DNA of 64,000 bases, taken from the NCBI RefSeq assembly GCF_900156465.1, contig NZ_LT707064.1:3983001-4047000 (forward strand), in the 5' to 3' direction. This document shows positions 36,407 to 49,464 of this stretch, one piece after another. Position numbers and translations under genes: made by a program. The stretch is from Pseudomonas sp. 7SR1. GTDB taxonomy: Bacteria > Pseudomonadota > Gammaproteobacteria > Pseudomonadales > Pseudomonadaceae. The notes beneath the pieces are model-generated. The model did not search any database, was not told the DNA's origin, and worked only from the letters and a program-made list of their open reading frames with translations. The stretch's first letter is position 1. Every line of letters begins with the position of its first letter.

Positions 36407-37876
36407 TCAGGGGGCTTTCGAAATGAAACGGGCATCGACGCCGTCGTGTTGCCAGCCTCCACCCAGTGCCTTGAAGGTGGCGATCGCGGCGCGAGCCGAT
36501 TCGGTTTGCGCCTGGGCCCTGCCATCCGCCGCCGCCAGGAGGTGCTCGTCGGCGTCCAGCACTTCGATCAGGCTGACCACGCCTTTCTCATAGGCTGCGA
36601 ATGAGGTCGAGCGAGCCTTGGCATAGGCGGATTCGCCCTGGACCAGGTGAATCGACTGTTGCTGTCGATTGATCAAGGCCGAGAGGGAGGTTTCGACATC
36701 TTCGCAAGCCCGCAGGACGGACTGCCGATAGGCCGCCAGGGCTTCGGCTTCCTGGCCTTTCGCCAAGTCGATCTGGGCATCGATGCGGGCGAAGTCGAAC
36801 AGTCTCCAACGCAATCCCAGCACCGCCGAAGCCTGGCTGGCGTCATTGCTGAACAGGTTGCCACTGGACACCGCCGTGGCAGTGCCCAGCAACGCACCCA
36901 GGGAGAGTTTCGGGTAGTACTCGGAAGTGGCTTGCCCGATGCGTGCGTTGGCTGCCGCAAGGCGACGCTCGGCGACGATCAGGTCCGGGCGTCGCCGCAA
37001 GAGATCGGCCACGGCGCCCATGTCCGCCAGGTTCGGCACGCCCGGAATGGCGCCAGGTTCGGTGAACTGTCCGCGGTAGGTGCCCGGTGGCTTGCCCAGC
37101 AGGACGTCCAGTGCGTTCATGGCTGCATCGAGGCCCGCTTGCAGGACCGGTACGCTGGCCTGGGCCTGGGTCAGCGATCCTTGGGTCTGGTGCAACTGCA
37201 ATTCGGGCGCCAGGCCCTTTGCATACAAGTGCTCGATGGTGGAAAGAAGCTGTTCCCGGGTCTTGACTTGCTGCCGGGCGATGTCCAGGCGTGTCTGCAG
37301 GCCGCGGATGCTGACATAGAGGTCCGCCGTTTGCGCCACGACCGCCAGGCGGGTCGCCACCGCTGCGGCCTGGGAGGCCTGGTACTCGGCCAGGGCGGCC
37401 TCTTTGCCGCGGCGCAGCCCACCGGAGATGTCGAGTTCCCAGCCCGCGTTCAAGTTTGCCTCATAGGCGTTGCCATAGCGGTTGTAGGAGGGGGTTGAAT
37501 TCAACACCTGGCCCAGCGGCGTCTCCAAAGATTGGCGAGACCGGGCGGCCTGGGCATCGACGGTGGCCGACGGCAGCAGCGCTGCGTTGGCGGCGCCCAG
37601 TCCGGCGCGAGCCTGTTCGATCCTTGCGCTGGCCTGGGCCAGGTCCAGGTTCTGCTCGAGTGCCTGGCGAACCAGCTGGTTCAGGAGCGGGTCGTTGAAC
37701 GCGCCCCACCAACGGGCGAGGTCGGTTCTTGCAACGCTATCCGGCCCCGGTGCGGGCGCCTGGGTGGAAAAATGCGCCGGCAATTGCAGGTCGGGCTCGG
37801 AGTAGTCGGGACCTGCCGCGCAGCCCGCGACCATACCGAAGCACAGCATGACGGCAAAACGGGGAGTAGGGGGCAT
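36407..37876 (-). CDS. NodT-type outer-membrane efflux lipoprotein (RND system)
   Basis: The 489-residue protein of the OprM/NodT family forms the trimeric outer-membrane channel of a tripartite pump. It starts with a lipoprotein signal (lipobox VAGC, near residue 18) and has the two OEP repeats (WWGAFNDPLLNQLVRQALEQN; NLDLAQASARIEQARA; the second near residues 330-460). ATG 37876 has AAGG 7 bases upstream. It is divergent from tetR, with the pump genes on the other side. Site A of the shared operator lies directly upstream. Confidence 0.93.
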   Translation of the reverse strand: MPPTPRFAVMLCFGMVAGCAAGPDYSEPDLQLPAHFSTQAPAPGPDSVARTDLARWWGAFNDPLLNQLVRQALEQNLDLAQASARIEQARAGLGAANAALLPSATVDAQAARSRQSLETPLGQVLNSTPSYNRYGNAYEANLNAGWELDISGGLRRGKEAALAEYQASQAAAVATRLAVVAQTADLYVSIRGLQTRLDIARQQVKTREQLLSTIEHLYAKGLAPELQLHQTQGSLTQAQASVPVLQAGLDAAMNALDVLLGKPPGTYRGQFTEPGAIPGVPNLADMGAVADLLRRRPDLIVAERRLAAANARIGQATSEYYPKLSLGALLGTATAVSSGNLFSNDASQASAVLGLRWRLFDFARIDAQIDLAKGQEAEALAAYRQSVLRACEDVETSLSALINRQQQSIHLVQGESAYAKARSTSFAAYEKGVVSLIEVLDADEHLLAAADGRAQAQTESARAAIATFKALGGGWQHDGVDARFISKAP

Positions 37877-37902
37877 GCAATACCTTCGCAAAGGGGAGGG
37901 GT

Positions 37903-37930
37903 TTGTGACGATATTACGATTTGGTCACAA
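37903..37930. promoter_or_regulatory. TetR operator, site A (OMF/tetR)
   Basis: TTGTGACGA-N10-TGGTCACAA, 17 of 18 arm positions paired. It lies between the outer-membrane factor and tetR genes and matches sites B and C. The regulator can thus control itself and the channel gene. Confidence 0.8.
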
Positions 37931-37967
37931 GTTGTCAAGCTGGCCCGGGATGAGTAAGCTGGCCCCC

Positions 37968-38588
37968 ATGAACCAGCCATCCCCCCCATCGCCCAGCGTT
38001 CGCGGCCCTGCCGATCACGACATTCGAGACCAGATCGTCGCGGCGGCCAACGAGCACTTCAGCCAGTATGGCTACGGCAAGACCACGGTGTCCGACCTGG
38101 CCAAGGCCATCGGCTTTTCCAAGGCCTATATCTACAAATTCTTCGACTCCAAGCAGGCGATCGGCGAAGCCATCTGCTCCAACTGCCTGGGGAAGATCGT
38201 CGACGCCGTGGAACAGGCCATCGAGGTTGAAGGCCTGTCCAGCACCGAACGTCTGCGGCGCCTGGTCAAGGCCCTGGTCGAGACGGGCGTGAGCCTGTTT
38301 TTCAATGAGCGCAAGCTCTACGACATCGCGGCGTTTTCCGCGATGGAGCGCTGGCCCAGCTCGCAGGTCTATAGCGCCCGGATCAGGCGCTTCGTGCTGG
38401 ATATCGTGCGCGAAGGGCGGGAATCGGGTGAGTTCGAGCGCAAGACCCCCCTGGACGAAACCGTCGAGGCGATCCATCTGTCGCTGCGTCCGTTCACCAA
38501 CCCGCTGTTATTGCAGTACAACCTCGACTACGTCGAGCAAGCCCCCACCCTGATCTCCAACCTGATCCTGCGCAGCCTGATGCCATAA
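37968..38588 (+). CDS. TetR-family repressor of the efflux regulon
   Basis: The 206-residue repressor has an N-terminal helix-turn-helix (IVAAANEHFSQYGYGKTTVSDLAKAIGFSKAYIYKFFDSKQAI, residues about 22-65) and a helical ligand domain. The start could also be ATG 37950; neither has a strong ribosome site. It is divergent from the outer-membrane factor and precedes the pump operon on the same strand. Three near-identical operators in the region (sites A-C) fit this repressor best. The ligand is unknown. Confidence 0.88.
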   Translation: MNQPSPPSPSVRGPADHDIRDQIVAAANEHFSQYGYGKTTVSDLAKAIGFSKAYIYKFFDSKQAIGEAICSNCLGKIVDAVEQAIEVEGLSSTERLRRLVKALVETGVSLFFNERKLYDIAAFSAMERWPSSQVYSARIRRFVLDIVREGRESGEFERKTPLDETVEAIHLSLRPFTNPLLLQYNLDYVEQAPTLISNLILRSLMP

Positions 38589-38687
38589 GGCGCGGCGGTG
38601 GGTGCGCTGGCATCCATCGCCCGTTCCAGTCCCATTCATGAACCTTCGCCTTTGCTGACGGGCAGGAAGCTCTTCCTTGTCGATGTT

Positions 38688-38715
38688 TTGTGACCATTGA
38701 CAGAATTGGTCACTT
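38688..38715 (+). promoter_or_regulatory. TetR operator, site B, over the pump promoter
   Basis: TTGTGACCA-N10-TGGTCACTT, 7 inner arm bases perfectly paired. The N10 spacer contains a perfect TTGACA (38697-38702) in the direction of the pump genes, so a bound repressor would cover the -35. A clear -10 at ideal spacing is not seen. The adaptor ATG follows 36 bases downstream. Confidence 0.85.
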
Positions 38716-38751
38716 GAATGAGCATAACGCATCCGCTATCGAGAGGTCGTT

Positions 38752-39873
38752 ATGATCCCGCGCCATTCCCTGTCATTCATGCTGCTTGGTTTGTTGTCAT
38801 GTGCCCTGGTGGCCTGCAGTGAGACCGCGCCGCCCGATCCGCGCCTGCAAACACCTCTCGTACGGGTCGAAGTGGTGCAGCCGGCCGATCCCGCGAAACG
38901 GGTATTCACCGGTATCGTCGCGGCACGGGTGCAGAGTGACCTCGGTTTCCGGGTCTCCGGCAAAGTGCTGGAGCGGCTGGTGGATACCGGCCAGAGCGTC
39001 AAGCGCGGGCAGCCGCTGATGCGCATCGATGCCAATGACTTGAGGCTGGCCGCCCGTGCACAGCAGCAGGCAGTGCTGGCAGCCACGGCACGGGCCCGCC
39101 AGGCCGCTGACGATGAACTTCGCTACCGTGACCTGGTGTCGATCGGAGCGGTGTCCGCTTCAGCCTATGCAGCGATCAAGGCGACCGCCGATTCGGCCAA
39201 GGCCCAGCTCAACGCGGCCCAGGCCGAGGCCGATGTGGCAGCCAATGCGACGAGCTATTCGACCTTGGTGGCCGATGCCGATGGGGTGGTGGTCGACACC
39301 CTGGCCGAGCCCGGGCAGGTCGTCAGTGCGGGCCAGGTGGTGGTGCGCGTCGCCCATTCGGGCCAGCGCGAGGCGGTGATCCAGTTGCCCGAAACGCTGC
39401 GCCCGGCGCTGGGCTCGCCGGCGACGGTCGAGCGTTATGGCCAGCACCGCAGCGGTGCCAGCGCCTACCTGCGCCAGTTGTCCGATTCGGCGGACCGGCA
39501 GACCCGGACATTCGAGGCGCGCTACGTATTGGACGGCGCGCTGGCCAACGCAACCCTGGGTTCGACCATCACGGTGGCGATCGCCGATGGCCAGGCGGCC
39601 AACGGCAATGACGTGCAAGTACCCATCGCCGCCCTCCATGATGCCGGAAAAGGCCCGGGTGTCTGGGTCGTGGCCGGCGACCCGGGGCAGGTGACCTGGC
39701 GACCCGTCACGATCCAGGCCTTGAACAATGCCGAGACCGCTCGGGTGACAGGCGCGCTGCAGGCCGGTGAGCGCATCGTTGCGCTGGGTGCCCATCTTCT
39801 GAGCGAGGGGCAGCAGGTCAGGTCCGAGTCGCCCGTCAGCCTTCGCACGCCTGTGGCTGAGGTGGCTCGATGA
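38752..39873 (+). CDS. RND efflux periplasmic adaptor lipoprotein
   Basis: The 373-residue adaptor has a lipoprotein signal (lipobox VACS, near residue 22) and the normal order of membrane-fusion parts: a barrel-sandwich with lipoyl half motifs GKVLERLVDTGQSVKRGQPLMRID and DGVVVDTLAEPGQVV, a short alpha hairpin (about residues 95-155), a beta-barrel and a membrane-proximal domain. It joins the RND pump to the outer-membrane channel. GAGAGG lies 5 bases before the ATG. The stop overlaps the transporter start as ATGA. Confidence 0.93.
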   Translation: MIPRHSLSFMLLGLLSCALVACSETAPPDPRLQTPLVRVEVVQPADPAKRVFTGIVAARVQSDLGFRVSGKVLERLVDTGQSVKRGQPLMRIDANDLRLAARAQQQAVLAATARARQAADDELRYRDLVSIGAVSASAYAAIKATADSAKAQLNAAQAEADVAANATSYSTLVADADGVVVDTLAEPGQVVSAGQVVVRVAHSGQREAVIQLPETLRPALGSPATVERYGQHRSGASAYLRQLSDSADRQTRTFEARYVLDGALANATLGSTITVAIADGQAANGNDVQVPIAALHDAGKGPGVWVVAGDPGQVTWRPVTIQALNNAETARVTGALQAGERIVALGAHLLSEGQQVRSESPVSLRTPVAEVAR

Positions 39874-42800
39874 GTGGCTTCAATCTGTCGGCACTGGCGG
39901 TGCGGGAGCGCTCGATCACGCTGTTCCTGATCCTGCTGATTTCCATCGGCGGGCTCTACGCTTTCTTCAAGCTTGGGCGTGCGGAAGACCCGGCATTCAC
40001 CATCAAGCAGATGACCGTGATCACGGCCTGGCCCGGTGCGACGGCCCAGGAGATGCAGGATCAAGTCGTCGAGAAGCTGGAAAAGCGCATGCAGGAACTG
40101 CGCTGGTACGACCGCACCGAAACCTTCACCCGTCCGGGGCTGGCTTTCACCACCGTCTACCTGCTCGATAGCACACCGCCTTCGGCTGTCGCGGACGAGT
40201 TCTACCAGGCGCGCAAGAAGATTCATGATGAAGAGAACGGCTTGCCGCCGGGTGTGATCGGCCCGATGGTCAACGACGAGTATGCCGACGTCACCTTCGC
40301 CCTTTATGCCCTGAAGGCCAAGGGCGAACCGCAGCGCAGGCTGGTGCGGGAGGCCGAAGGCCTGCGCCAGCGCCTGCTGCATGTGGCGGGTGTCAAGAAG
40401 GTCAATATCATTGGCGAGCAGGCCGAGCGGATCTATGTCGAGCTGTCGTACGAGCACCTGGCGACGCTGGGTATCTCTGCCCGGGACATTTTCAACGCGC
40501 TCAATGCCCAGAACCTGATGACGCCGGCCGGTTCGGTGGAAGCGAAGGGGCCCCAGGTCTTCATCCGCCTGGACGGCGCATTCGATGACTTGCAGAAGAT
40601 CCGCGATACGCCGCTGGTGGTGCAGGGCAGGACCCTGAAGCTGTCCGATGTGGCCGAAGTCCGGCGCGGTTATGAAGACCCCGCCACCTTCCTGGTACGC
40701 AATAACGGCGAGCCGGCCCTGCTGCTGGGCGTGGTCATGCGCGACGGCTGGAACGGCCTCGACCTGGGGAAGGCGCTCGATGCCGAGGCGACGGCCATCA
40801 ATGAGCAGATGCCCTTGGGCCTGACGCTGACCAAGGTCACGGATCAGGCGGTCAACATCAGCGCGTCCGTCAATGAATTCATGGTCAAGTTCTTCGCCGC
40901 CCTGGGCGTGGTGCTGCTGGTGTGCTTCCTGAGCATGGGCTGGCGCGTGGGCATTGTCGTCGCGGCGGCGGTGCCGTTGACCCTCGCCGCGGTCTTCATC
41001 GTGATGGCTGCGACGGGCAAGGATTTCGACCGGATCACCCTGGGCTCGCTGATCCTGGCGTTGGGGCTGCTGGTGGACGACGCCATCATCGCCATCGAGA
41101 TGATGGTGGTGAAAATGGAGGAGGGCTATGACCGGATCAAGGCCAGCGCCTATGCCTGGAGCCATACCGCGGCGCCCATGTTGTCGGGCACGCTGGTCAC
41201 GGCGATCGGCTTCATGCCCAACGGTTTTGCCAAGTCCACGGCGGGTGAGTACACCGCCAACATGTTCTGGATCGTCGGCATTGCCCTGATCACCTCGTGG
41301 GTCGTCGCGGTGGTGTTCACGCCGTACCTGGGGGTCAGGCTGTTGCCTTCGATCAAGGCCCCGGAGGGCGGCCACGCCGCTATCTACGGTACGCCTCGTT
41401 ACCAGCGTTTCAGGCGCCTGCTGGGTGGTGTCATTCGCCGCAAGGGCCTGGTCGCGTTATCCGTCGTCGGCCTGTTCGTCGTGGCGGTGCTGGGCATGGG
41501 GGTGGTGAAGAAGCAGTTCTTCCCGACCTCGGACCGGCCCGAGGTACTGGTGGAGGTGCAGATGCCCTACGGCACCTCGATCGAGCAGACCGATGCGGCC
41601 ACGGCCAAGGTGGAGGCCTGGCTGGCGAAACAGCCGGAAGCGCGCATCGTCACGGCCTACATAGGACAGGGCGCACCGCGTTTCTATCTGGCGATGGCAC
41701 CGGAACTGCCTGATCCTTCGTTCGCCAAAATCGTTGTCCTGACCGCCAGCCAGGAGGAGCGTGACGCGCTGAAGCTACGGCTTCGACAAGCGGCGGCCGA
41801 CGGCCTGGCCCCTGAAGCCCGGGTTCGTGTGACCCAGTTGGTGTTCGGTCCTTATTCGCCGTTCCCGGTGGCCTTCCGGGTCATGGGCCCGGACCGCGCT
41901 GTGCTGCGCGATATCGCCGCGCAAGTGCGCGAAGTAATGGCCGCCAGCCCGATGATGAGAACCGTCAATACGGACATGGGCGAACGTGTCCCGACGTTGC
42001 ACCTCACCCTGGACCAGGATCGCCTGCAGGCTTTCGGCCTGACTTCCACGGACGTTGCCCAGCAACTTCAGTTCCTGCTCACTGGCGCCCCCGTCACGCA
42101 GGTTCGCGAGGATATCCGTTCGGTCCAGGTGATCGCGCGTTCGGCAGGCGACACGCGCCTGGATCCGTCGCAGATCGGTGCCTTCACCTTGACCGGTGCC
42201 CAGGGCCAGCGAGTCTCGCTGTTGCAGGTCGGCACGGTGGGGACGCGCATGGAGGATTCGCTCCTGCGCCGCCGTGACCGTACGCCCACCATCACCGTGC
42301 GCGGCGACGTCGCCGAAGGGCTCCAGCCGCCGGATGTGTCCAATGCGGTCATGGCTCAGCTGCAACCGATCATCGAGCGACTGCCGCCCGGCTACCGGAT
42401 CCAGATGGCCGGGGCTGTCGAGGAGTCGGGAAAGGCGAACAAGGCATTGCTGCCCCTGTTCCCGATCATGATCGCGCTGATGCTGCTGACCATCATCGTC
42501 CAGGTACGCTCGATGTCGGCCATGCTGATGGTGTTCGCCACCGCGCCCCTGGGGTTGATCGGCGTGGTGCCGATCCTGCTGCTGTTCCAGCAGCCGTTCG
42601 GCATCAACGCCCTGGTGGGCCTGATTGCGCTGTCGGGCATCCTGATGCGCAACACCCTGATCCTCATCGGCCAGATCCACGTGAACGAACAGGCCGGCCT
42701 GTCGCCTTACGACGCGGTGGTCGAAGCCACGGTGCAACGTGCGCGACCGGTGATCCTCACCGCGCTGGCGGCGATGCTGGCATTCATTCCGCTGACCCAT

Positions 42801-42962
42801 TCGGTGTTCTGGGGAACGCTGGCCTACACGCTGATCGGCGGGACCTTCGCCGGTACCGTGCTGACCCTGATATTCCTGCCTGCGATGTATTCGCTCTGGT
42901 TCAAGATCAAGCCCGGGCCTGCCCACCAACCCGTCCTGGAGGCGCACGCCGTATCGCGCTGA
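39870..42962 (+). CDS. RND-family multidrug efflux transporter
   Basis: The 1030-residue inner-membrane pump of the AcrB/HAE-type family has 12 membrane helices and two large periplasmic loops. The proton-relay Asp pair is in LGLLVDDAIIAIE (about residues 395-407), and a helix-10 Lys region lies further on. It exports lipophilic compounds with proton flow. It is co-transcribed with the adaptor and probably with the following thioesterase 32 bases downstream. Substrates are unknown. Confidence 0.95.
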   Translation: MSGFNLSALAVRERSITLFLILLISIGGLYAFFKLGRAEDPAFTIKQMTVITAWPGATAQEMQDQVVEKLEKRMQELRWYDRTETFTRPGLAFTTVYLLDSTPPSAVADEFYQARKKIHDEENGLPPGVIGPMVNDEYADVTFALYALKAKGEPQRRLVREAEGLRQRLLHVAGVKKVNIIGEQAERIYVELSYEHLATLGISARDIFNALNAQNLMTPAGSVEAKGPQVFIRLDGAFDDLQKIRDTPLVVQGRTLKLSDVAEVRRGYEDPATFLVRNNGEPALLLGVVMRDGWNGLDLGKALDAEATAINEQMPLGLTLTKVTDQAVNISASVNEFMVKFFAALGVVLLVCFLSMGWRVGIVVAAAVPLTLAAVFIVMAATGKDFDRITLGSLILALGLLVDDAIIAIEMMVVKMEEGYDRIKASAYAWSHTAAPMLSGTLVTAIGFMPNGFAKSTAGEYTANMFWIVGIALITSWVVAVVFTPYLGVRLLPSIKAPEGGHAAIYGTPRYQRFRRLLGGVIRRKGLVALSVVGLFVVAVLGMGVVKKQFFPTSDRPEVLVEVQMPYGTSIEQTDAATAKVEAWLAKQPEARIVTAYIGQGAPRFYLAMAPELPDPSFAKIVVLTASQEERDALKLRLRQAAADGLAPEARVRVTQLVFGPYSPFPVAFRVMGPDRAVLRDIAAQVREVMAASPMMRTVNTDMGERVPTLHLTLDQDRLQAFGLTSTDVAQQLQFLLTGAPVTQVREDIRSVQVIARSAGDTRLDPSQIGAFTLTGAQGQRVSLLQVGTVGTRMEDSLLRRRDRTPTITVRGDVAEGLQPPDVSNAVMAQLQPIIERLPPGYRIQMAGAVEESGKANKALLPLFPIMIALMLLTIIVQVRSMSAMLMVFATAPLGLIGVVPILLLFQQPFGINALVGLIALSGILMRNTLILIGQIHVNEQAGLSPYDAVVEATVQRARPVILTALAAMLAFIPLTHSVFWGTLAYTLIGGTFAGTVLTLIFLPAMYSLWFKIKPGPAHQPVLEAHAVSR

Positions 42963-42994
42963 ACGGTCCGTGTGCGTAAAAAGAGGAGATCCGC

Positions 42995-43774
42995 ATGAGT
43001 TCGTTGGCCGGGGTCATCCAGCGGTTCGATCCCGCTGCACCGTTTGTGGCAGCGGACAACTGGCGCCAGGGCCGAACGGTCTTCGGCGGTTTGTCCGCGG
43101 CCTTGTCGTTGCAGACAGTGTTGCTCGAGACCGGCGCGGACCTGCCGCCCTTCAAATCGGCGCAGGTTTCCTTCATCGGCCCGGTGACGGATGCCCAGAC
43201 ATTCAACACCAGCGTCTTGCGCCGTGGTCGCTCGATGACCTCGGTCGCGGTGGATTGCATGTCGGGTAATGACCTGGCGCTGCGTACAACGCTGTCGTTC
43301 GCCTTGCCCCGCACCAGCCGGATCGTCCATGAGGCATGGGGACGCCCGGCCGTCGCGGGGCCAACCCGATACCCGGTGTTGCATCTGGACAGGCAGATTG
43401 CCCCGGCATGTGCCTTCAATTTCGAAATGCGCCCGGCGGGAGGCTCCCTTCCGATGACCGGAGCCGACCATCCCGAGTTGCTGATGTGGGTGCGCCACCT
43501 GGATGCGCAAGGCGTGGATCCGGCTGTCGCCTTGATTGCATTGGCTGACAGCCTGCCACCTGCGGCCATGACCTGCTTCACCGAGCCGGCTGCCATCAGT
43601 TCCGCGTCATGGATGATCGACTTGCCCCAGCCTGCGACCGCTGGCCGTTGGTTCCTGATCAATGCCTTCAGCCGACAGGCCCTGGAAGGTTATTCCCTGC
43701 AAGACATGGAAATCTGGGACGAGAGCGGCCGCAGGGTGCTTTGGGCACGCCAGACCGTGGCGGTCTTTATCTAG
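42995..43774 (+). CDS. Double-hotdog acyl-CoA thioesterase-like protein
   Basis: The 259-residue protein has two hotdog folds of the TesB/4HBT_3 type: residues about 12-110 (WRQGRTVFGGLSAALSLQTV, a conserved acyl-binding segment) and about 120-258 (ending DMEIWDESGRRVLWARQTVAVF). Such proteins hydrolyse acyl-CoA or related thioesters. GAGGAG lies 6 bases before the ATG. It is the third gene of the TetR-controlled pump operon. Its TAG stop abuts repeat element copy 2. A thioesterase inside an efflux operon is unusual. Confidence 0.82.
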   Translation: MSSLAGVIQRFDPAAPFVAADNWRQGRTVFGGLSAALSLQTVLLETGADLPPFKSAQVSFIGPVTDAQTFNTSVLRRGRSMTSVAVDCMSGNDLALRTTLSFALPRTSRIVHEAWGRPAVAGPTRYPVLHLDRQIAPACAFNFEMRPAGGSLPMTGADHPELLMWVRHLDAQGVDPAVALIALADSLPPAAMTCFTEPAAISSASWMIDLPQPATAGRWFLINAFSRQALEGYSLQDMEIWDESGRRVLWARQTVAVFI

Positions 43775-43866
43775 GCTCTGTACGAGAGGCCTTGATACTC
43801 GCTCATGTTGCGTTGAAAACAGCCTCGCCTGACCTTCGTCTCAAGGCTTTTCTTACAGAACCCAGG
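43772..43866. repeat. MITE-like inverted-repeat element, copy 2
   Basis: The left end TAGGCTCTGTACGA and the inside (CCTTGATACTCGCTCATG, GCGTTGAAAACAGCCT) match copy 1; the right end (AAGGCTTTTCTTACAGAACCC) is slightly decayed. The element starts exactly at the TAG stop of the thioesterase gene. A separate perfect 10-base inverted repeat (CCTTGCTCGA at 43930-43939 and TCGAGCAAGG at 43971-43980) lies farther along the same gap. Confidence 0.75.
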
Positions 43867-44004
43867 ATTTTTATCCGGCAAGTCGAGCGTGGGGATTCCA
43901 GCGCTCGAGTTCCCCGCACAATCCACCCGCCTTGCTCGAGGAGGCCGAACGTCATCCGTATCGTTCTTTTTCGAGCAAGGGCACGGGTGAGCGGTGATTG
44001 CCGC

Positions 44005-45258
44005 TCAGGTGCGATGGGTGAAGAGAAACAGGATGATCGCCACCAGGCAGACGCTGGCCTGTGTGACACCCAGGGTGGTGACGGGGGCGAAGTCCGATGC
44101 GGACCCCAGCCAGGTGGTTACCGCCGACGCCCCCATGGTCAGGAAGCCAAGCAGCGCTGACGCCAGCCCGGCCTCTTTACCGAAAGGGTTCAGGGTGATG
44201 GCTGTTCCCAGAGGGTTGGCGAGGCCCATGCCCCACAGGAAAATCACCATCGACAGGGAATACCAGGCCAGGCCCGGATCGGCGGGACCGACGATGAGCA
44301 CCAGTCCGCCCGCCAGGGCCGTGGCGAAGCCCAGGGCTGTGATCTTCCGGCTGCCGTAGCGTCGAGCCAGGTGCGGGGCCGCCATGCCCGCCGCGAACAC
44401 GACGAACACAGTGGCCGCGAAGTACAGCCCGGCTTCCAGGGATGTCAGGCCGATCCCGCTCATCAGGATCGCCGGGGCGGCGCCGAACGAGGCGAACAGC
44501 CCGCTCATCAACAGGCTCACCGACACGGCGGGAAGCACGAACCGGCGGTCGCGCAGCAAGCCGCCATAGGCCCGCAGGACACTCAGCGGCGAATGCGGGG
44601 CCCGGCGCTCGGGCGGGTGTTTCTCCCCCAGGCCACGGGCATAGAAGATCGCAATGGCGATGGCCGCCAGAGCGACCAGGGCGAAGATCGCCCGCCAGCC
44701 CAGCGTCGAGGTCAGCAGGCTACCGATCAGCGGCGAGAACCCTGGCGCGGCTGCCGTGGCGATCATCGTCAGCGACAAGGCCCGGGCCAGGTTCTCGCCT
44801 TCGAACAGATCGCGGGCGATGGCACGGGAAAGCACCGCCGCCGCACAAACGCCCAGGGCCTGGATAATACGCCCGAGCAGGAGCGTTTCCAGGGTGGTGG
44901 CGAAACCCGCGACAGCCGTGCCCGCCACGAACAGGGACAAACCGCCCAGTACCAGTTTCTTGCGTCCGTACCGATCCGCCAGCGGCCCGACGATGAGTTG
45001 GGCCAAGGCGAAGGTGATGAAGAAACTGGAGAGGGTCAGGCCCAGCGCCCGGGTCGGCACGCCGAGTTCCTGCCCGATGTCGGCAAAGGCCGGGAGGATG
45101 ATGTTGGTGGACAGGATGCTGATGGCGGCAAGGCCGGCCAGCAGCACCACGATCCTGGCGCTCAGTATCGGCTGCCCGGGGGCGGAAGCCGCGACGAGGG
45201 TTCCCGCAGTCCCGCCCTCGACTGGTTGCAGCGAAGGCGTTCGCGGTTCGGCCATCAT
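44005..45258 (-). CDS. MFS drug-type exporter (Bcr/CflA-like)
   Basis: The 417-residue inner-membrane carrier has 12 predicted helices. The major-facilitator motif A is GPLADRYGRKKLVLGG (about residues 93-108), and the motif C-like region is GFSPLIGSLLTSTLGWRAIF. It is likely a proton-coupled exporter of a small, toxic or signalling compound. Its ATG overlaps the stop of the upstream ketosynthase gene as ATGA, so the two are expressed together under operator site C. Confidence 0.9.
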   Translation of the reverse strand: MMAEPRTPSLQPVEGGTAGTLVAASAPGQPILSARIVVLLAGLAAISILSTNIILPAFADIGQELGVPTRALGLTLSSFFITFALAQLIVGPLADRYGRKKLVLGGLSLFVAGTAVAGFATTLETLLLGRIIQALGVCAAAVLSRAIARDLFEGENLARALSLTMIATAAAPGFSPLIGSLLTSTLGWRAIFALVALAAIAIAIFYARGLGEKHPPERRAPHSPLSVLRAYGGLLRDRRFVLPAVSVSLLMSGLFASFGAAPAILMSGIGLTSLEAGLYFAATVFVVFAAGMAAPHLARRYGSRKITALGFATALAGGLVLIVGPADPGLAWYSLSMVIFLWGMGLANPLGTAITLNPFGKEAGLASALLGFLTMGASAVTTWLGSASDFAPVTTLGVTQASVCLVAIILFLFTHRT

Positions 45259-46547
45259 GGTGTGGCTTCCCAGCGGCGGAACAATACGCTGGCATTCACC
45301 CCGCCGAATCCAAAGCCATTGGACAAGGCATAGGTCAGGGGCATTTTCCGCGCATCGAGGCCAACCAGGTCCAGCCCTTCGGCAGCCTCGTCGGGGCTGA
45401 CCAGGTTCAGGGTGGGTGGCACGACCTGGTCGCGTAGCGCCAATACCGTGAAGATCGCTTCGATGCCTCCGGCGGCGCCAAGCAGGTGACCGGTGGCGGA
45501 TTTCGTGGAAGTGATCGCCACGCCTGAGCCGGTGCCGAACACCGACCTGATCGCGGCCAGCTCGCCCTTGTCGCCCACCTGGGTCGACGTGGCATGGGCG
45601 TTGATATGCTGGACTTCGCTTGCGCTCACATCGGCCTGGCGCAAGGCTTGCTCCATGGCCCGTCTTGCACCGTTGCCATCCTCGGGGCCGGCGGTGAGGT
45701 GATAGGCGTCGGCGCTGGTGCCATAGCCCACCAGTTCCGCCAAGGGTGTCGCGCCCCGGGCGAGGGCATGTTCCAGCGACTCGATGACCAGCAGCCCGGC
45801 GCCTTCTGCCATGACAAAACCATCGCGGTCGCGATCGAACGGGCGCGAGGCGGTTTCAGGAGCCTCGGCCGGGTGCGTGGACAGTGCCCGGGCGGCGGCG
45901 AAGCAACCCAGGGTCACCCGATCCATCGCGGCTTCCGTACCGCCGCAGATGGCGATGTCCGCTTCACCGCTGGCGATGAGGCGGGCTGCGTCGCCGATGG
46001 CCTGGACGCCGGCGGCGCAGGCCGTCACCGGAGCACCGAGAGGGCCCTTGAAACCGTTCTGGATCGACACGTTGCCTGCCGCCATGTTCGCGAGGAAGGA
46101 GGGGGCCGTGAACGGGGACAGCCGGCGAGGGCCGCGGCTGTCGGTGATGCGAATGGCCTCGGCGATCGCGCCGAAACCTCCGACGCCCGAGGCGATGATG
46201 GTGGCCGTGCGCTCTTGCTGGTGCGCTTGCGCTGGGTGCCAGCCTGCCTGCTCCAGTGCTTCATGGGCGGCGACCATTGCGAATTCGATGAAGCGATCCA
46301 TCTTCTTGCGTTCTTTCGCCGCGATGATCCGGTCAGGCGCATAACCGGCAACGGCATCTTCTTCCAGCGTCGGCACCTGGCCGCCTACCGCGATTCCCGT
46401 GCCCTCGACCATTTCGTCTGGAAGCCTGCGGATGCCCGAGCGCCCGTCAAGCAGACGACGCCACACTTCTTCGACGCCACACCCCAGCGGGCCGACGATA
46501 CCGGTTCCCGTGACTACTATTCGCTTGCGACCTTTGGAATTGATCAT
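45255..46547 (-). CDS. FabF-like beta-ketoacyl-ACP synthase
   Basis: The 430-residue ketosynthase is of the KASII (FabF) type. The catalytic Cys is in VTACAAGVQA (about residue 168), and the two His are in NAHATSTQVGD (about 311) and KSATGHLLG (about 348). All three are kept, so it should be able to condense acyl-ACP. The start at 46547 (GAGG, 5-6 bases upstream) gives a normal KAS N-terminus (KRIVVTGTGIVGPLG). It is not in a fab cluster but with an exporter and under the TetR operator, so a special role, such as a resistant back-up for an inhibited FabF or a tailoring step, is possible. Confidence 0.88.
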   Translation of the reverse strand: MINSKGRKRIVVTGTGIVGPLGCGVEEVWRRLLDGRSGIRRLPDEMVEGTGIAVGGQVPTLEEDAVAGYAPDRIIAAKERKKMDRFIEFAMVAAHEALEQAGWHPAQAHQQERTATIIASGVGGFGAIAEAIRITDSRGPRRLSPFTAPSFLANMAAGNVSIQNGFKGPLGAPVTACAAGVQAIGDAARLIASGEADIAICGGTEAAMDRVTLGCFAAARALSTHPAEAPETASRPFDRDRDGFVMAEGAGLLVIESLEHALARGATPLAELVGYGTSADAYHLTAGPEDGNGARRAMEQALRQADVSASEVQHINAHATSTQVGDKGELAAIRSVFGTGSGVAITSTKSATGHLLGAAGGIEAIFTVLALRDQVVPPTLNLVSPDEAAEGLDLVGLDARKMPLTYALSNGFGFGGVNASVLFRRWEATP

Positions 46548-46633
46548 TTGACCCTCGTCATTACTGATTCGGCGCCCGTCGGATCGCACCGATCCATATG
46601 CCGGCCAGGATCGACGGGAGGCCAGTTTTAGTC

Positions 46634-46661
46634 TTGTGACCAATATTGTCAATGGTCACAA
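46634..46661 (-). promoter_or_regulatory. TetR operator, site C, over the ketosynthase promoter
   Basis: TTGTGACCA-N10-TGGTCACAA, both 9-base arms perfect. Read toward the ketosynthase, the spacer holds TTGACA (-35) followed after 16 bases by TAAAAC as a likely -10. Site B has the same layout in the direction of its gene. The distance to the ATG is about 87 bases. Confidence 0.85.
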
Positions 46662-46688: not shown

Positions 46689-47690
46689 TCATTTGAGCTG
46701 AACCACGACCTTGCCCTTGGCGCGGCCCTGCGCCAGGTATTGCAGTGCCTCTGTCGCGCGTTCGAAGGCAAAGACCTTGTCGATCACCGGACGAATGCGC
46801 TCCGACTCGAGCAATCCGCCGATCTCCTCGAGCTGAGCGCCATCGGGACGGACGAAAAGAAACGAATAGCTGACGCCCTTCTTTTTCGCCAGGCCCATGA
46901 TGCGGCGGCTCATGAGGCCGAATACGAAGGCCAGGAAGAAATTGAGCCCGCGGGCGCGGGCGAATGCCTTGTCCAGGGGGCCGACGAGAGAAACGATCCT
47001 GCCTCCCGGCTTGAGTACCTCGAGGGACTTTTCAATCGTGTCGCCTCTGAGCGTGCCCAGGACACTGTCGTAGCCGCGCAGCACCGTCTCGAACGCTAGC
47101 TGTTTATAGTCCAGCACTTCGTCGGCCCCCAGGTCGCTGACCCATTGGACATTTGCCGTGCTGGTGGTGGTGGCCACCTTGGCGCCGAAGTGTTTGGCCA
47201 GCTGGATCGCAAAGCTGCCGATGCCACCCGAACCTGCGGGGATGAAGACGTTCTGCCCCGCCTGCAGATGGGCACGTTCCTTCAGGGCTTGCCATGAGGT
47301 GAGGCCGACCATGGGTATCGACGCTGCCTGGACGAAATCCAGGTTGGCCGGTTTGGGCGCCGCCACGTCCTGGGGTACCGCGGCCAATTCGGCCAGTGAC
47401 CCGGTACCCCGGTCGAACAGGCTGGCGAAGATGGCGTCACCGACCTTGAAACGTGTCACGCGGCTGCCCACCTCCACGACGACCCCGGCCAGGTCGCTGC
47501 CGATGACGGCCGGTAGCTGGAGCTTGAGCACCGGCTTGAACAGGCCGGTCATGATCATGTTGTCGATGGGGTTCAAGGCGGCGGCATGAACCTCGACCAA
47601 CAGTTCGTCCGGCTTGAGCGTGGGGCGTGGGACTTCGGCAAACCCGATGTCGGGCGATCTGCCGTAGCGTTTGAAGGTGAGTGCTTTCAT
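46689..47690 (-). CDS. Quinone-oxidoreductase-like NADP-dependent dehydrogenase
   Basis: The 333-residue protein is of the medium-chain dehydrogenase family without zinc. The NADPH motif is PAGSGGIGSFAIQLA (about residues 150-164), and the GroES-like domain (VHAAALNPIDNMIM; VIGSDLAGVV) comes first. It would reduce quinones or enones with NADPH. AAAGGA lies close to the ATG at 47690. It reads toward the ketosynthase gene, but 140 bases with operator site C separate them. Confidence 0.87.
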   Translation of the reverse strand: MKALTFKRYGRSPDIGFAEVPRPTLKPDELLVEVHAAALNPIDNMIMTGLFKPVLKLQLPAVIGSDLAGVVVEVGSRVTRFKVGDAIFASLFDRGTGSLAELAAVPQDVAAPKPANLDFVQAASIPMVGLTSWQALKERAHLQAGQNVFIPAGSGGIGSFAIQLAKHFGAKVATTTSTANVQWVSDLGADEVLDYKQLAFETVLRGYDSVLGTLRGDTIEKSLEVLKPGGRIVSLVGPLDKAFARARGLNFFLAFVFGLMSRRIMGLAKKKGVSYSFLFVRPDGAQLEEIGGLLESERIRPVIDKVFAFERATEALQYLAQGRAKGKVVVQLK

Positions 47691-47794
47691 TCCTTTATCC
47701 TGGTCGGGGCAGGTTGGGCTTGGCGGGGCTTCGATGCGACGATGCGGCGACGACAGGACTGTCGCCACCGCACGGTATCCACATCGGCAGAACC

Positions 47795-48583
47795 TCAGGC
47801 TTGAGGCTGGTAGCGCTCGGCCGCGTGGGCCTGGCGGATGTCCGACATGAGTCCCTGGCGCGCGCCATCCAGGGCGTCCCAGCGTTCGGCGACATGCAGG
47901 GGGGGAATGGTGACCCGTTCGCGACGATCGAAGCCGACCAGGGCCGCATCCACCAGTTCACCCACCTCCATCACTTGCGCAAGGATGTTGATGTCGATGC
48001 CGGCGCGTTCCCAGATCTCCGTGCGAGTCGATGCCGGTAGCACCGCCTGCACATAGACACCCTTGGACGACAGTTCATGGTCCAGCCCCTGGGAGAGGAA
48101 CAGCACGAAGGCCTTGGTGGCGCCATAGACCGACATGCCGAACTCGGGCGCAAAACCCACCACCGAGCCGATGTTCACGATCGCGCCGCTGCCAGCCTGC
48201 GCAAAGCGCGGGGCGACTGCGCAGGCCAGCCGGGTCAGAGCGGTGACGTTGAGAGTGATCAGGCGTTCGATGGCGTCGGAAGACTGCTGCACGAAGCCGC
48301 CTGACTGGGCCATGCCGGCGTTGTTGATCAGCACGCCGATGCGAGCGTCATCGCGCAGACGAGTCTCAAGCGCGGCCAGGTCGGCGGATTCGGTCAAGTC
48401 CGCTTGCAGCACCTCGACGGCGACACCGTGGTCCGCCCGCAGGCGTTGCGCCAGGGTGTCCAGGCGGGCCTTGTCGCGTGCGGCCAGCACCAGGTCGTGG
48501 CCGCGGCGGGCGAAACGTTCTGCGTAAGTCGCGCCGATGCCGGTGGAAGCGCCGGTGATGAAGACGGTTGGAAGCGTGGTCAT
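47795..48583 (-). CDS. Short-chain dehydrogenase/reductase
   Basis: The 262-residue SDR has the NAD(P) motif TGASTGIG (about residues 10-17), the NNAGM motif, and catalytic Ser (NIGSVVG), Tyr and Lys (YGATK). AAAGGA lies 7 bases before the ATG. It is divergent from a TetR gene and lies directly after the remnant of a nemA gene on the same strand, so it once was probably the second gene of a nemA-SDR unit. Substrate unknown. Confidence 0.9.
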   Translation of the reverse strand: MTTLPTVFITGASTGIGATYAERFARRGHDLVLAARDKARLDTLAQRLRADHGVAVEVLQADLTESADLAALETRLRDDARIGVLINNAGMAQSGGFVQQSSDAIERLITLNVTALTRLACAVAPRFAQAGSGAIVNIGSVVGFAPEFGMSVYGATKAFVLFLSQGLDHELSSKGVYVQAVLPASTRTEIWERAGIDINILAQVMEVGELVDAALVGFDRRERVTIPPLHVAERWDALDGARQGLMSDIRQAHAAERYQPQA

Positions 48584-48629
48584 GAGTCTTTCCTTTACGG
48601 GAGAGTCGGTCAGGCAGGGAGGGCTCGCC

Positions 48630-48704
48630 TCAGCCGGCGAGGGTTGGGTAATCGGTGTAGCCCGCGGCGCCGCCGCCATAAAGCGTGGCCGGGTTCGAAA
48701 AGCG
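48630..48704 (-). pseudogene. 3' remnant of a NemA-type old yellow enzyme gene
   Basis: The minus strand from about 48704 to the TGA at 48630-48632 reads NPATLYGGGAAGYTDYPTLAG-stop. YGGGAxGYTDYP-L is the conserved C-terminus of N-ethylmaleimide reductase (old yellow enzyme). The rest of the gene, about 340 codons, is absent; only about 25 codons remain. It lies between the divergent TetR control region and the SDR gene, as expected if an upstream nemA had been deleted. Confidence 0.82.
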
Positions 48705-48747
48705 TTTTTCCGGACATTCCTTTCAGATTCCAGGATGGGGAAAGGCT

Positions 48748-48765
48748 TTATGATTACGATCATAA
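48748..48765. promoter_or_regulatory. Inverted-repeat operator of the second TetR regulator
   Basis: TTATGAT-TACG-ATCATAA is a perfect 7-4-7 palindrome in the control region between tetR and the SDR/nemA unit. A second, looser dyad (TTGATG-N8-CATCAA) lies at 48783-48802. Both fit TetR-type control; the first is the stronger candidate. Confidence 0.65.
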
Positions 48766-48849
48766 TCTAAATTGTCAAATCTTTGATGATGATCGACATC
48801 AATGTATAGTGAGGCTTCCCCAGCAGGCAGATATCCACCTGGATGCGTT

Positions 48850-49464
48850 ATGAAAGTCTCTAAAGCACAGGCACAGGCCAACCGGGCGCGGGTTGTCGAG
48901 ACGGCGTCCACGCTGTTTCGTGAACGCGGCTACGACGGCGTTGGCGTCGCTGACCTGATGGCGGCGGCCGGCTTTACCCACGGCGGTTTCTACAAGCAAT
49001 TCAACTCCAAGGCCGACCTGATGGCGGAGTCGGCGGCCTGCGGTATCGCACAGACCGTTGCGCTGAGCGACGGCATCAACATCCAGGATTTCGTTCGGTA
49101 TTACCTGTCGCGCCAGCATCGCGACGCCCGTGCCACCGGTTGCACCATGGCGGCGCTGGGCGGGGATGCCGCGCGTCAACCAGAGGCTGTCCGGGCCACC
49201 TTCGCGGCGGGCATCGAAAGCCTGTTGGACGCGCTCAGCCATGAGGCAGGGGAGTCGAGCGAAGCTGACCCCGCGCAGGTGCGAGCCGAGTCCCTCAGCA
49301 CGCTGGCGCATGTCATCGGCGCAATGGTCATGTCGCGAGCCTGTCCGGACGATTCGCCGCTGGCCGACGAAATCCTGAGTGTGTGCCGCGACCGCCTCCT
49401 TGCCTCACCGAGCCCGTCCGAAGAGGCGGGGCAAGACGGTGACCCTGGGGTTGGCCCGCTATGA
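48850..49464 (+). CDS. TetR-family regulator (NemR-like context)
   Basis: The 204-residue repressor has the helix-turn-helix ANRARVVETASTLFRERGYDG... VADLMAAAGFTHGGFYKQFNSKADL. Cysteines at GCTMAAL and SRACPDD lie in the ligand part and might sense electrophiles, as in NemR-type regulators next to old yellow enzymes; this is inference. ATG 48850 is the family start, and the ATG at 48802 lies in the promoter. It is divergent from the SDR gene and nemA remnant. Confidence 0.85.
   Translation: MKVSKAQAQANRARVVETASTLFRERGYDGVGVADLMAAAGFTHGGFYKQFNSKADLMAESAACGIAQTVALSDGINIQDFVRYYLSRQHRDARATGCTMAALGGDAARQPEAVRATFAAGIESLLDALSHEAGESSEADPAQVRAESLSTLAHVIGAMVMSRACPDDSPLADEILSVCRDRLLASPSPSEEAGQDGDPGVGPL

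What the first reader, a model, noticed from the sequence alone, without database searches (positions are those of the whole stretch)
36407..46661. One TetR regulon joins an RND pump with a thioesterase, a FabF-like ketosynthase and an MFS exporter
Three copies of the same 28-bp operator TTGTGACCA-N10-TGGTCACAA lie before the OMF/tetR pair, the adaptor gene and the ketosynthase gene. Sites B and C carry TTGACA (-35) in the spacer in the same place relative to the controlled gene. The regulon thus covers two exporters plus two acyl-thioester enzymes, all intact in their catalytic residues. I infer a response to, or a route for, a lipophilic acyl compound or fatty-acid-synthesis inhibitor: pumps remove it and a spare ketosynthase replaces the blocked FabF, or the enzymes make and export an acyl product. 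I know of no described system with this exact set.
Basis: partly seen in the sequence, partly recalled or inferred. Interest (0 to 1): 0.82.

Follow-up and report, generated by a model that had tools for sequence, protein, structure and literature searches.

The report
Repressor pairs drug pumps with ketosynthase
One repressor in a Pseudomonas seems to switch two drug exporters together with a spare fatty-acid-building enzyme and a thioesterase; the core of this switch was described in Pseudomonas putida in 2021, but the shared DNA switch site and the wider gene set are laid out here and suggest a joint defence of fatty-acid synthesis.

Summary
Three copies of a 28-bp palindrome (1, 2 and 0 mismatches) lie before OMF/tetR, the adaptor gene and the ketosynthase gene; up to 3 mismatches they are the only copies in the 6.09-Mb genome. 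The site is conserved: of 80 named TetR loci, 77 hold an adaptor gene; the fixed pattern stands before 69 of these at up to 4 mismatches, a trained matrix before 77. Adaptor sites often carry TTGAC inside the operator, with a -10 element 17 bp on. Ketosynthase-MFS belongs to the regulon: a relative has the pair behind the operator on another contig, and four Pantoea agglomerans strains carry TetR-operator-ketosynthase and operator-pump on different plasmids. FadL, SDR and thioesterase are variable members. The core is not new: in P. putida F1 a TetR gene, two efflux genes and fabF2 form one operon, TetR represses it, and derepressed FabF2 replaces FabB (PMC8319022); the authors called the pump 'unrelated'. 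New here are the operator, the wider, trans-acting regulon and the MexK/TriC class of the pump. The most likely role, inferred only, is a response to a lipophilic compound that disturbs fatty-acid synthesis: export plus bypass enzyme. No inducer is known.

The parts
36407..37876 (-). outer membrane factor (NodT/OprM-type) of the RND pump
   Evidence: TIGR01845 303 bits, cut-off 210; present in 64 of 80 related loci at 45% identity or more
37903..37930 (.). operator site A, between OMF and tetR
   Evidence: 1 mismatch; matrix score 37.0
37968..38588 (+). tetR repressor (TetR_N + TetR_C_27), probable start at 37968
   Evidence: Pfam; no NCBIfam equivalog reaches its cut-off; helix-turn-helix region nearly invariant in 37 aligned sequences
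38688..38715 (+). operator site B; TTGACA -35 at 38697-38702 inside it
   Evidence: 2 mismatches; architecture conserved
38752..39873 (+). periplasmic adaptor (MFP) of the RND pump
   Evidence: TIGR01730 183 bits, cut-off 94.9
39870..42962 (+). RND permease, MexK/TriC class
   Evidence: PF00873; nearest solved structures MexK 836 bits and TriC 761 bits, next best 210
42995..43774 (+). TesB-like double-hotdog acyl-CoA thioesterase, probably co-transcribed with the RND gene
   Evidence: 4HBT_3 + 4HBT_3C
44005..45258 (-). Bcr/CflA-family MFS exporter, 4-bp overlap with the ketosynthase gene
   Evidence: TIGR00710 212 bits, cut-off 200.9
45255..46547 (-). FabF2-type beta-ketoacyl-ACP synthase (C177, H318, H354)
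   Evidence: PRK06333 721 bits, cut-off 525; FabF equivalog 523, cut-off 493.75; 48% identical to the own FabF; residues
46634..46661 (-). operator site C; TTGACA -35 at 46652-46647 on the - strand
   Evidence: 0 mismatches; matrix score 40.4

Best explanation
This is a TetR-repressed efflux-plus-lipid regulon, a rearranged form of the P. putida F1 Pput_2425-2424-2423-fabF2 operon. TetR binds the 28-bp palindrome, covers the -35 hexamer of the pump and ketosynthase promoters and keeps them off; a third site between OMF and tetR gives control of OMF and autorepression. A ligand, unknown and probably lipophilic, releases TetR. The MexK/TriC-class RND pump and the Bcr/CflA exporter then remove it, while FabF2 takes over elongation steps of fatty-acid synthesis (FabB and weakly FabF) and the thioesterase trims unwanted acyl thioesters. 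Shown here by sequence: sites, promoter architecture, conservation and linkage in trans. Shown by others in P. putida F1: repression of tetR and pump promoters, fabF2 cotranscription, FabB replacement. Inferred: binding in this strain, the ligand, and the protective purpose.
For: Three sites, none elsewhere in the genome at up to 3 mismatches. In the genus, sites average 2.29 in 49 TetR-positive genomes against 0.80 in 100 TetR-negative ones; reversed-pattern control 0.84 and 0.70. Untrained pattern before the adaptor gene in 53 of 77 named loci at up to 3 mismatches and 69 of 77 at up to 4; trained matrix 77 of 77, and before tetR 68 of 80. TTGAC in the operator toward the gene in 93 of 128 distinct adaptor sites, 19 of 21 FadL, 5 of 5 thioesterase and 1 of 1 ketosynthase sites, against 0 of 70 and 0 of 15 tetR sites; in 98 adaptor sequences with TTGAC, -10 positions A 0.99, A 0.91, T 0.97 after a 17-bp spacer. 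Trans linkage: unnamed relative G112 has site-KS(94%)-MFS(90%) on a contig other than tetR. Four P. agglomerans strains carry tetR-site-fabF and OMF-site-site-MFP-RND on two plasmids (sites); for one strain the whole pump plasmid was searched and lacks a close TetR. P. vagans pVag1 has SDR, OMF, TetR, MFP, RND, fabF, MFS together. The window ketosynthase lies inside the clade of pump- or MFS-linked enzymes. Genetics in P. putida F1 (PMC8319022).
Against: No binding or expression data exist for this strain. The ketosynthase is not universal: it follows the RND gene within 1.5 kb in only 22 of 70 loci where it could be seen (in L084 it lies 1.8 kb behind). In 24 of 41 TetR-positive genomes with a ketosynthase at E<=1e-150 it lies elsewhere, and 14 of 14 of these that I scanned have no site within 1.5 kb. 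In two genomes (G125, G039) the MFS gene is far from tetR with no site in the 14-kb stretch (L199, L200). Three loci with a more distant TetR (39-43%) next to a similar pump have no site (L201-L203). In P. putida F1, deleting fabF2 raised rather than lowered resistance to ampicillin, erythromycin and carbenicillin, and deleting the two pump genes did not change the fabB-deletion phenotype. The matrix was trained partly on the same loci. Identity of the window proteins with the named P. putida F1 proteins was not measured.
Confidence: 0.6

Rival explanations
1. Acyl-CoA/UFA balancing: the ligand is an acyl-CoA or a fatty acid from catabolism of organic compounds; FabF2, FadL, thioesterase and SDR adjust acyl chains and the pump exports surplus or toxic acyl compounds. 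Coping with diverse acyl-CoA intermediates is the purpose that the P. putida F1 authors suggest.
For: Relatives put FadL/TodX (PF03349) and the thioesterase directly behind the operator (22 and 7 site-gene pairs). Among the Foldseek PDB hits of the TetR model are acyl-CoA-binding FadR regulators of Bacillus and Thermus. Discussion of PMC8319022.
Against: TM-scores are about 0.5-0.7, and efflux and other TetRs score alike. The constant part of the regulon is a MexK/TriC-class pump, not a catabolic gene; FadL, thioesterase and SDR are in 31, 12 and 21 of 80 loci.
Confidence: 0.25
2. Production and export of a specialised acyl product made by ketosynthase, thioesterase and SDR and sent out by the two exporters.
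For: The enzyme types would fit; pVag1 has AHL synthase and LuxR genes, the first 1.3 kb behind the MFS gene.
Against: Enzymes come and go independently between loci; I noted no carrier protein, ligase or other dedicated gene recurring in the loci whose frames or annotation I read; in P. putida F1 FabF2 acts in ordinary fatty-acid synthesis.
Confidence: 0.08
3. Plain efflux regulon with passengers: the pump is the only selected part and the ketosynthase is an accidental neighbour.
For: No ketosynthase within 1.5 kb behind the RND gene in 48 of 70 loci; the P. putida F1 authors call the pump 'unrelated'.
Against: The operator goes with the ketosynthase when it is unlinked from the pump (G112; four Pantoea strains) and when the pump is reduced to a remnant in the assembly (P. 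orientalis, L032: TetR-site-RND tail-KS). A same-class pump and ketosynthase are also neighbours in alphaproteobacterial plasmids under a different TetR.
Confidence: 0.1

Closest known systems
Pput_2425-2424-2423-fabF2 operon of Pseudomonas putida F1 (PMC8319022; abstract, discussion and passages read)
   Same: TetR gene, two efflux genes and a FabF2 in one regulon; TetR represses its own and the pump promoter; FabF2 is cryptic until derepressed
   Different: Here the ketosynthase forms a separate unit with an MFS gene and its own operator; OMF and a thioesterase are added. The main text names no operator ('operator' and 'palindrom' 0 hits); supplements were not read.
MexL-MexJK of Pseudomonas aeruginosa
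   Same: TetR, one adaptor and an RND permease of the same class (MexK is the nearest solved structure)
   Different: Recalled: no OMF gene or ketosynthase in that cluster. MexL operator not compared; the paper opened for it has no hit for MexL.
TriABC-OpmH (P. aeruginosa) and TriR-TriABC (A. tumefaciens, PMC12838394)
   Same: RND class; repressor TriR in A. tumefaciens with triclosan as ligand (abstract and passages)
   Different: Needs two adaptors; one here; no ketosynthase described ('fabF' 0 hits)
FarR/FarE of Staphylococcus aureus (PMC10019231, search listing only; FarE as the exporter recalled)
   Same: TetR regulator linked to resistance to an antimicrobial fatty acid and RND-type efflux
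   Different: Gram-positive; no ketosynthase in the part of the abstract seen
KAS genes in thiotetronate antibiotic clusters (PMC5518548, search listing only; self-resistance by a spare KAS recalled)
   Same: Spare ketosynthase as possible resistance factor
   Different: No biosynthetic cluster for an inhibitor noticed here

Membership tests
P. putida F1 Pput_2425/fabF2 regulon | TetR gene next to a two-gene RND pump, with a FabF2 gene in the regulon | tested here: met
   Gene families and order; shared operator in the window and in relatives that have the P. putida order TetR-MFP-RND-KS
P. putida F1 Pput_2425/fabF2 regulon | fabF2 last gene of the TetR-pump operon | tested here: not met
   The ketosynthase starts 2.8 kb beyond the end of the thioesterase gene, on the opposite strand, with its own operator
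P. putida F1 Pput_2425/fabF2 regulon | TetR represses its own and the pump promoter and thereby fabF2 | not testable with these tools
   Shown in P. putida F1 only; here operators overlap the predicted promoters
P. putida F1 Pput_2425/fabF2 regulon | Orthology of the proteins by direct sequence comparison | not tested
   P. putida F1 sequences were not fetched by name; relatives with both TetR types share the helix-turn-helix
TriABC-type triclosan pump | two adaptor genes | tested here: not met
   one MFP gene in the cluster
MexK/TriC class of RND permeases | closest solved relatives are MexK and TriC | tested here: met
   836 and 761 bits, next best 210 bits
FabF/KAS II (PRK06333 subfamily) | score above the curated cut-offs and Cys-His-His triad | tested here: met
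   721 against 525 and 523 against 493.75 bits; C177, H318, H354
FabF/KAS II (PRK06333 subfamily) | condensing activity, FabB replacement | not testable with these tools
   reported for P. putida F1 FabF2
Acyl-CoA-responsive TetR (FadR type) | binds acyl-CoA | tested here: inconclusive
   weak fold similarity only; Bacillus-type FadR equivalog 37.9 bits, cut-off 200

The most novel reading that the evidence does not exclude
A widespread, partly plasmid-borne 'pump plus spare target' defence: an inducible regulon that expels a lipophilic inhibitor and at the same time makes replacement copies of its target. The ketosynthase replaces a blocked FabB/FabF; in alphaproteobacterial plasmid versions with another TetR and no 28-bp site, a similar ketosynthase lies beside the same RND class, and in some it is followed by an extra ftsZ. 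Different regulators recruiting the same pump and ketosynthase, and operators that keep unlinked parts together across replicons, would make this a recurrent resistance strategy.
Probability: 0.35. Interest if true: 0.78.

Novelty: new variant of a known kind. Interest (0 to 1): 0.6.

Why it matters
In P. putida F1, fabF2 is known as a cryptic gene beside an 'unrelated' pump. The conserved operator, kept when the genes are on different contigs or plasmids, says that pump and ketosynthase answer to one signal. That turns a puzzle (why pseudomonads keep a silent spare ketosynthase) into a direct test: find the ligand of this TetR with an operator-reporter. If it is a ketosynthase inhibitor, it would reveal a natural, inducible route around antibiotics aimed at bacterial fatty-acid synthesis.

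Tried and rejected
Operator as chance, or as a site that every genome of the genus has: rejected by shuffles, the reversed-pattern control and TetR-positive against TetR-negative genomes. Ketosynthase as biosynthetic-cluster enzyme: no recurrent dedicated partner seen in the loci whose frames or annotation I read. TetR as a known equivalog (FadR, BetI, AcrR and others listed): no NCBIfam model reaches its cut-off. TetR ligand from fold: model mean pLDDT 89, but PDB matches are broad, at TM about 0.5-0.7, so nothing is concluded. MexL operator comparison: the paper opened for it has no MexL hit. Literature searches that gave nothing on the function of this set: (listings only). Locus tags searched: Pput_2422-2425 gave one paper, PMC8319022. 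PP_3300-3304 (10 papers listed, of which I opened the three on Pseudomonas): a screen in which deleting PP_3302 had a minor effect on growth of a siderophore-export mutant, an annotation remark on PP_3303 and a list that counts PP_3302 among metal-type RND genes. That these tags are the KT2440 equivalents of the F1 operon is recalled. Searches in which I looked for other descriptions of the regulon; papers in those listings other than PMC8319022 and PMC2569920 were not opened.

The MFS search of 398 genomes scored only four candidates a genome, so 24 is a lower bound.
Full report
1. Observation. Gene calls: OMF (NodT family), TetR, adaptor, RND permease, TesB-like thioesterase, Bcr/CflA MFS exporter, FabF-like ketosynthase. 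The ketosynthase is one of several in the genome: the canonical FabF is 48% identical, three others 36-38%, and one further short match exists. Its nearest solved structure is 4ddo/4f32 (584 bits).

2. Conservation of the operator. A search with the TetR protein gave 80 named loci, its upper limit: 67 Pseudomonas, 3 Halomonadaceae and 10 betaproteobacterial, five of these MAGs. The fixed pattern taken from the window, without training, stands within 320 bp before the adaptor gene in 53 of the 77 loci that hold one at up to 3 mismatches and in 69 of 77 at up to 4. A matrix built from 153 distinct sites found near TetR, adaptor and OMF genes gave no score of 10 or more in 1.70 Mb of base-shuffled sequence; at a threshold of 14 it finds a site before the adaptor gene in 77 of 77 and before tetR in 68 of 80 loci, but it was trained on part of these loci. 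In the genus, genomes with the TetR have 2.29 pattern sites on average, genomes without it 0.80, close to the reversed-pattern control of 0.70. The rule has a border: three loci of the genus with a more distant TetR (39-43% identity) beside a similar pump have no site.

3. Promoter architecture. Over 112 loci (two of them seen twice), 285 sites were found; 268 have the start of an annotated regulon gene within 320 bp, and the other 17 lie 52-131 bp behind a tetR gene. Two kinds exist. Sites before the adaptor, FadL, thioesterase and ketosynthase often carry TTGAC at positions 10-14 toward the gene (93 of 128, 19 of 21, 5 of 5, 1 of 1 distinct sequences); sites before tetR never do (0 of 70; 0 of 15 for the second TetR type). 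In 98 adaptor sequences with TTGAC a -10 element follows at a spacer of 17. Window site B fits this (TTGACA, 17 bp, GAGCAT), and site C has TTGACA and AAAACT at the same spacing. Covering of the -35 by TetR is therefore the likely mode of repression.

4. Is the ketosynthase-MFS unit really in the regulon? Three lines say yes. (a) In unnamed relative G112 the operator (score 33) stands before a ketosynthase-MFS pair 94% and 90% identical to the window's, on contig C3, while tetR, thioesterase, FadL, SDR, OMF, adaptor and RND are on C63. (b) In four Pantoea agglomerans strains (BH6c, AJ2b, DAPP-PG734, C410P1) one plasmid carries TetR-operator-fabF and another OMF-operator-operator-adaptor-RND; three of the four have the MFS gene behind the RND gene, in C410P1 no MFS match was found (sites). 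For BH6c the whole pump plasmid was searched and has no TetR closer than 30% identity, E 8e-6; for the other three only the stretch was seen. (c) Elsewhere the ketosynthase follows the RND gene within 1.5 kb (22 of 70 loci where it could be seen), in P. vagans pVag1 with the MFS gene behind it. Of 24 genomes, out of 398, with a close MFS, 13 have the ketosynthase beside it and 2 more have TetR or RND beside it; in one of these two the MFS gene is divergent from tetR across the operator. In the other 9 neither is within 1.5 kb, and in two genomes where I looked 14 kb around the MFS gene (G125, G039) there is no site.

5. What speaks against a fixed unit. Among 49 TetR-positive genomes, 41 have a ketosynthase at E<=1e-150. 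In 15 it lies within 11 kb of tetR (in one of them, G120, the TetR is the distant kind without a site), in one more beside the RND gene on another contig (G004, L196), and in G112 in trans. In the other 24 it lies elsewhere; 14 of these were scanned and none has a site within 1.5 kb. A tree of 65 rows separates the unlinked Pseudomonas enzymes (13 rows, weak support 85/33) from a clade of 45 rows (99/93) that holds 43 of the 46 pump- or MFS-linked ones, the window's among them; the other three linked rows, from Halomonadaceae, lie outside both. So there are two kinds of FabF2 in Pseudomonas, and in this sample one of them lies with the pump or the MFS gene.

6. Other members. The operator also precedes FadL/TodX (22 site-gene pairs; two proteins checked as PF03349) and the thioesterase (7 pairs). 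An SDR gene lies in 21 of 80 loci. In some loci a second TetR of 53-61% identity stands beside the first; the one aligned shares the recognition region, and the sites are of the same kind.

7. Prior knowledge. PMC8319022 (abstract, discussion and passages read) reports for P. putida F1 an operon of TetR gene Pput_2425, two efflux genes and fabF2. Loss of the TetR gene raises the tetR and pump promoters and fabF2, so that FabF2 replaces FabB; fabF2 deletion raised resistance to three antibiotics; fabF2 clusters with a TetR gene are said to occur in other species. The authors see the pump as unrelated and give no operator in the main text. This covers the core of the finding. The RND permease belongs with MexK and TriC, pumps tied to triclosan (PMC12838394 abstract and passages).

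8. Function. Repression is well supported by analogy; the ligand is not known. Export plus bypass of a disturbed fatty-acid synthesis accounts for pump, MFS, FabF2 and, in relatives, FadL (uptake of outside fatty acids) and thioesterase. The rise in resistance on deleting fabF2 in P. putida F1 does not fit a simple resistance role against those three drugs, which by general knowledge do not act on ketosynthases. A lead that fits the spare-target idea: in four alphaproteobacterial plasmid loci the same RND class (65-66% identity) and ketosynthase (66-67%) are neighbours under a TetR of another type, with no such operator, once with a hotdog thioesterase; in 4 of the 12 alphaproteobacterial records with a ketosynthase of 65% or more in the sampled listing a shortened ftsZ follows the ketosynthase.

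9. Verdict. Observation confirmed; interpretation partly supported; core already described, regulon and operator a new variant. Interest 0.6.

Noticed in passing
L256 7377-8369, L257 7332-8339; also NZ_CP032695.1 and NZ_CP098809.1: Extra ftsZ genes (TIGR00065 387-389 bits, cut-off 295, for the two scanned; about 330 residues) directly behind a fabF2-like gene in alphaproteobacterial plasmids: 4 of 12 such records in the sampled listing.
   Followed up: partly
L244 5511-7284, L248 5484-7260: HxlR-type regulator plus fabF-like gene (67-68% to the window's) beside tet(G) and floR on plasmids of Enterobacter hormaechei and Pseudomonas paraeruginosa; 8 of 13 matching plasmid records hold most of the gene. 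Described only.
   Followed up: partly
L032 10001-12387: Pseudomonas orientalis: TetR, operator, a short RND remnant and then the ketosynthase; in this assembly the pump is missing but the enzyme is kept under the operator.
   Followed up: partly
L018, L025, L073-L076, L188: Two TetR paralogues in one locus, with the same kind of operator near both in most of them.
   Followed up: partly
window 46689-48763 and 48802-49464: Quinone-oxidoreductase-like gene, SDR and another tetR beside the regulon; in L035 and L048 a similar oxidoreductase and SDR (54% and 74%) lie beside the regulon's TetR.
   Followed up: no
L242 12058-13402: AHL synthase and LuxR genes close behind the full cluster on P. vagans pVag1.
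   Followed up: no
L247 3384-7263: Pantoea sp. At-9b: fabF2-like gene behind a HlyD/DHA2 exporter pair, without the operator.
   Followed up: no
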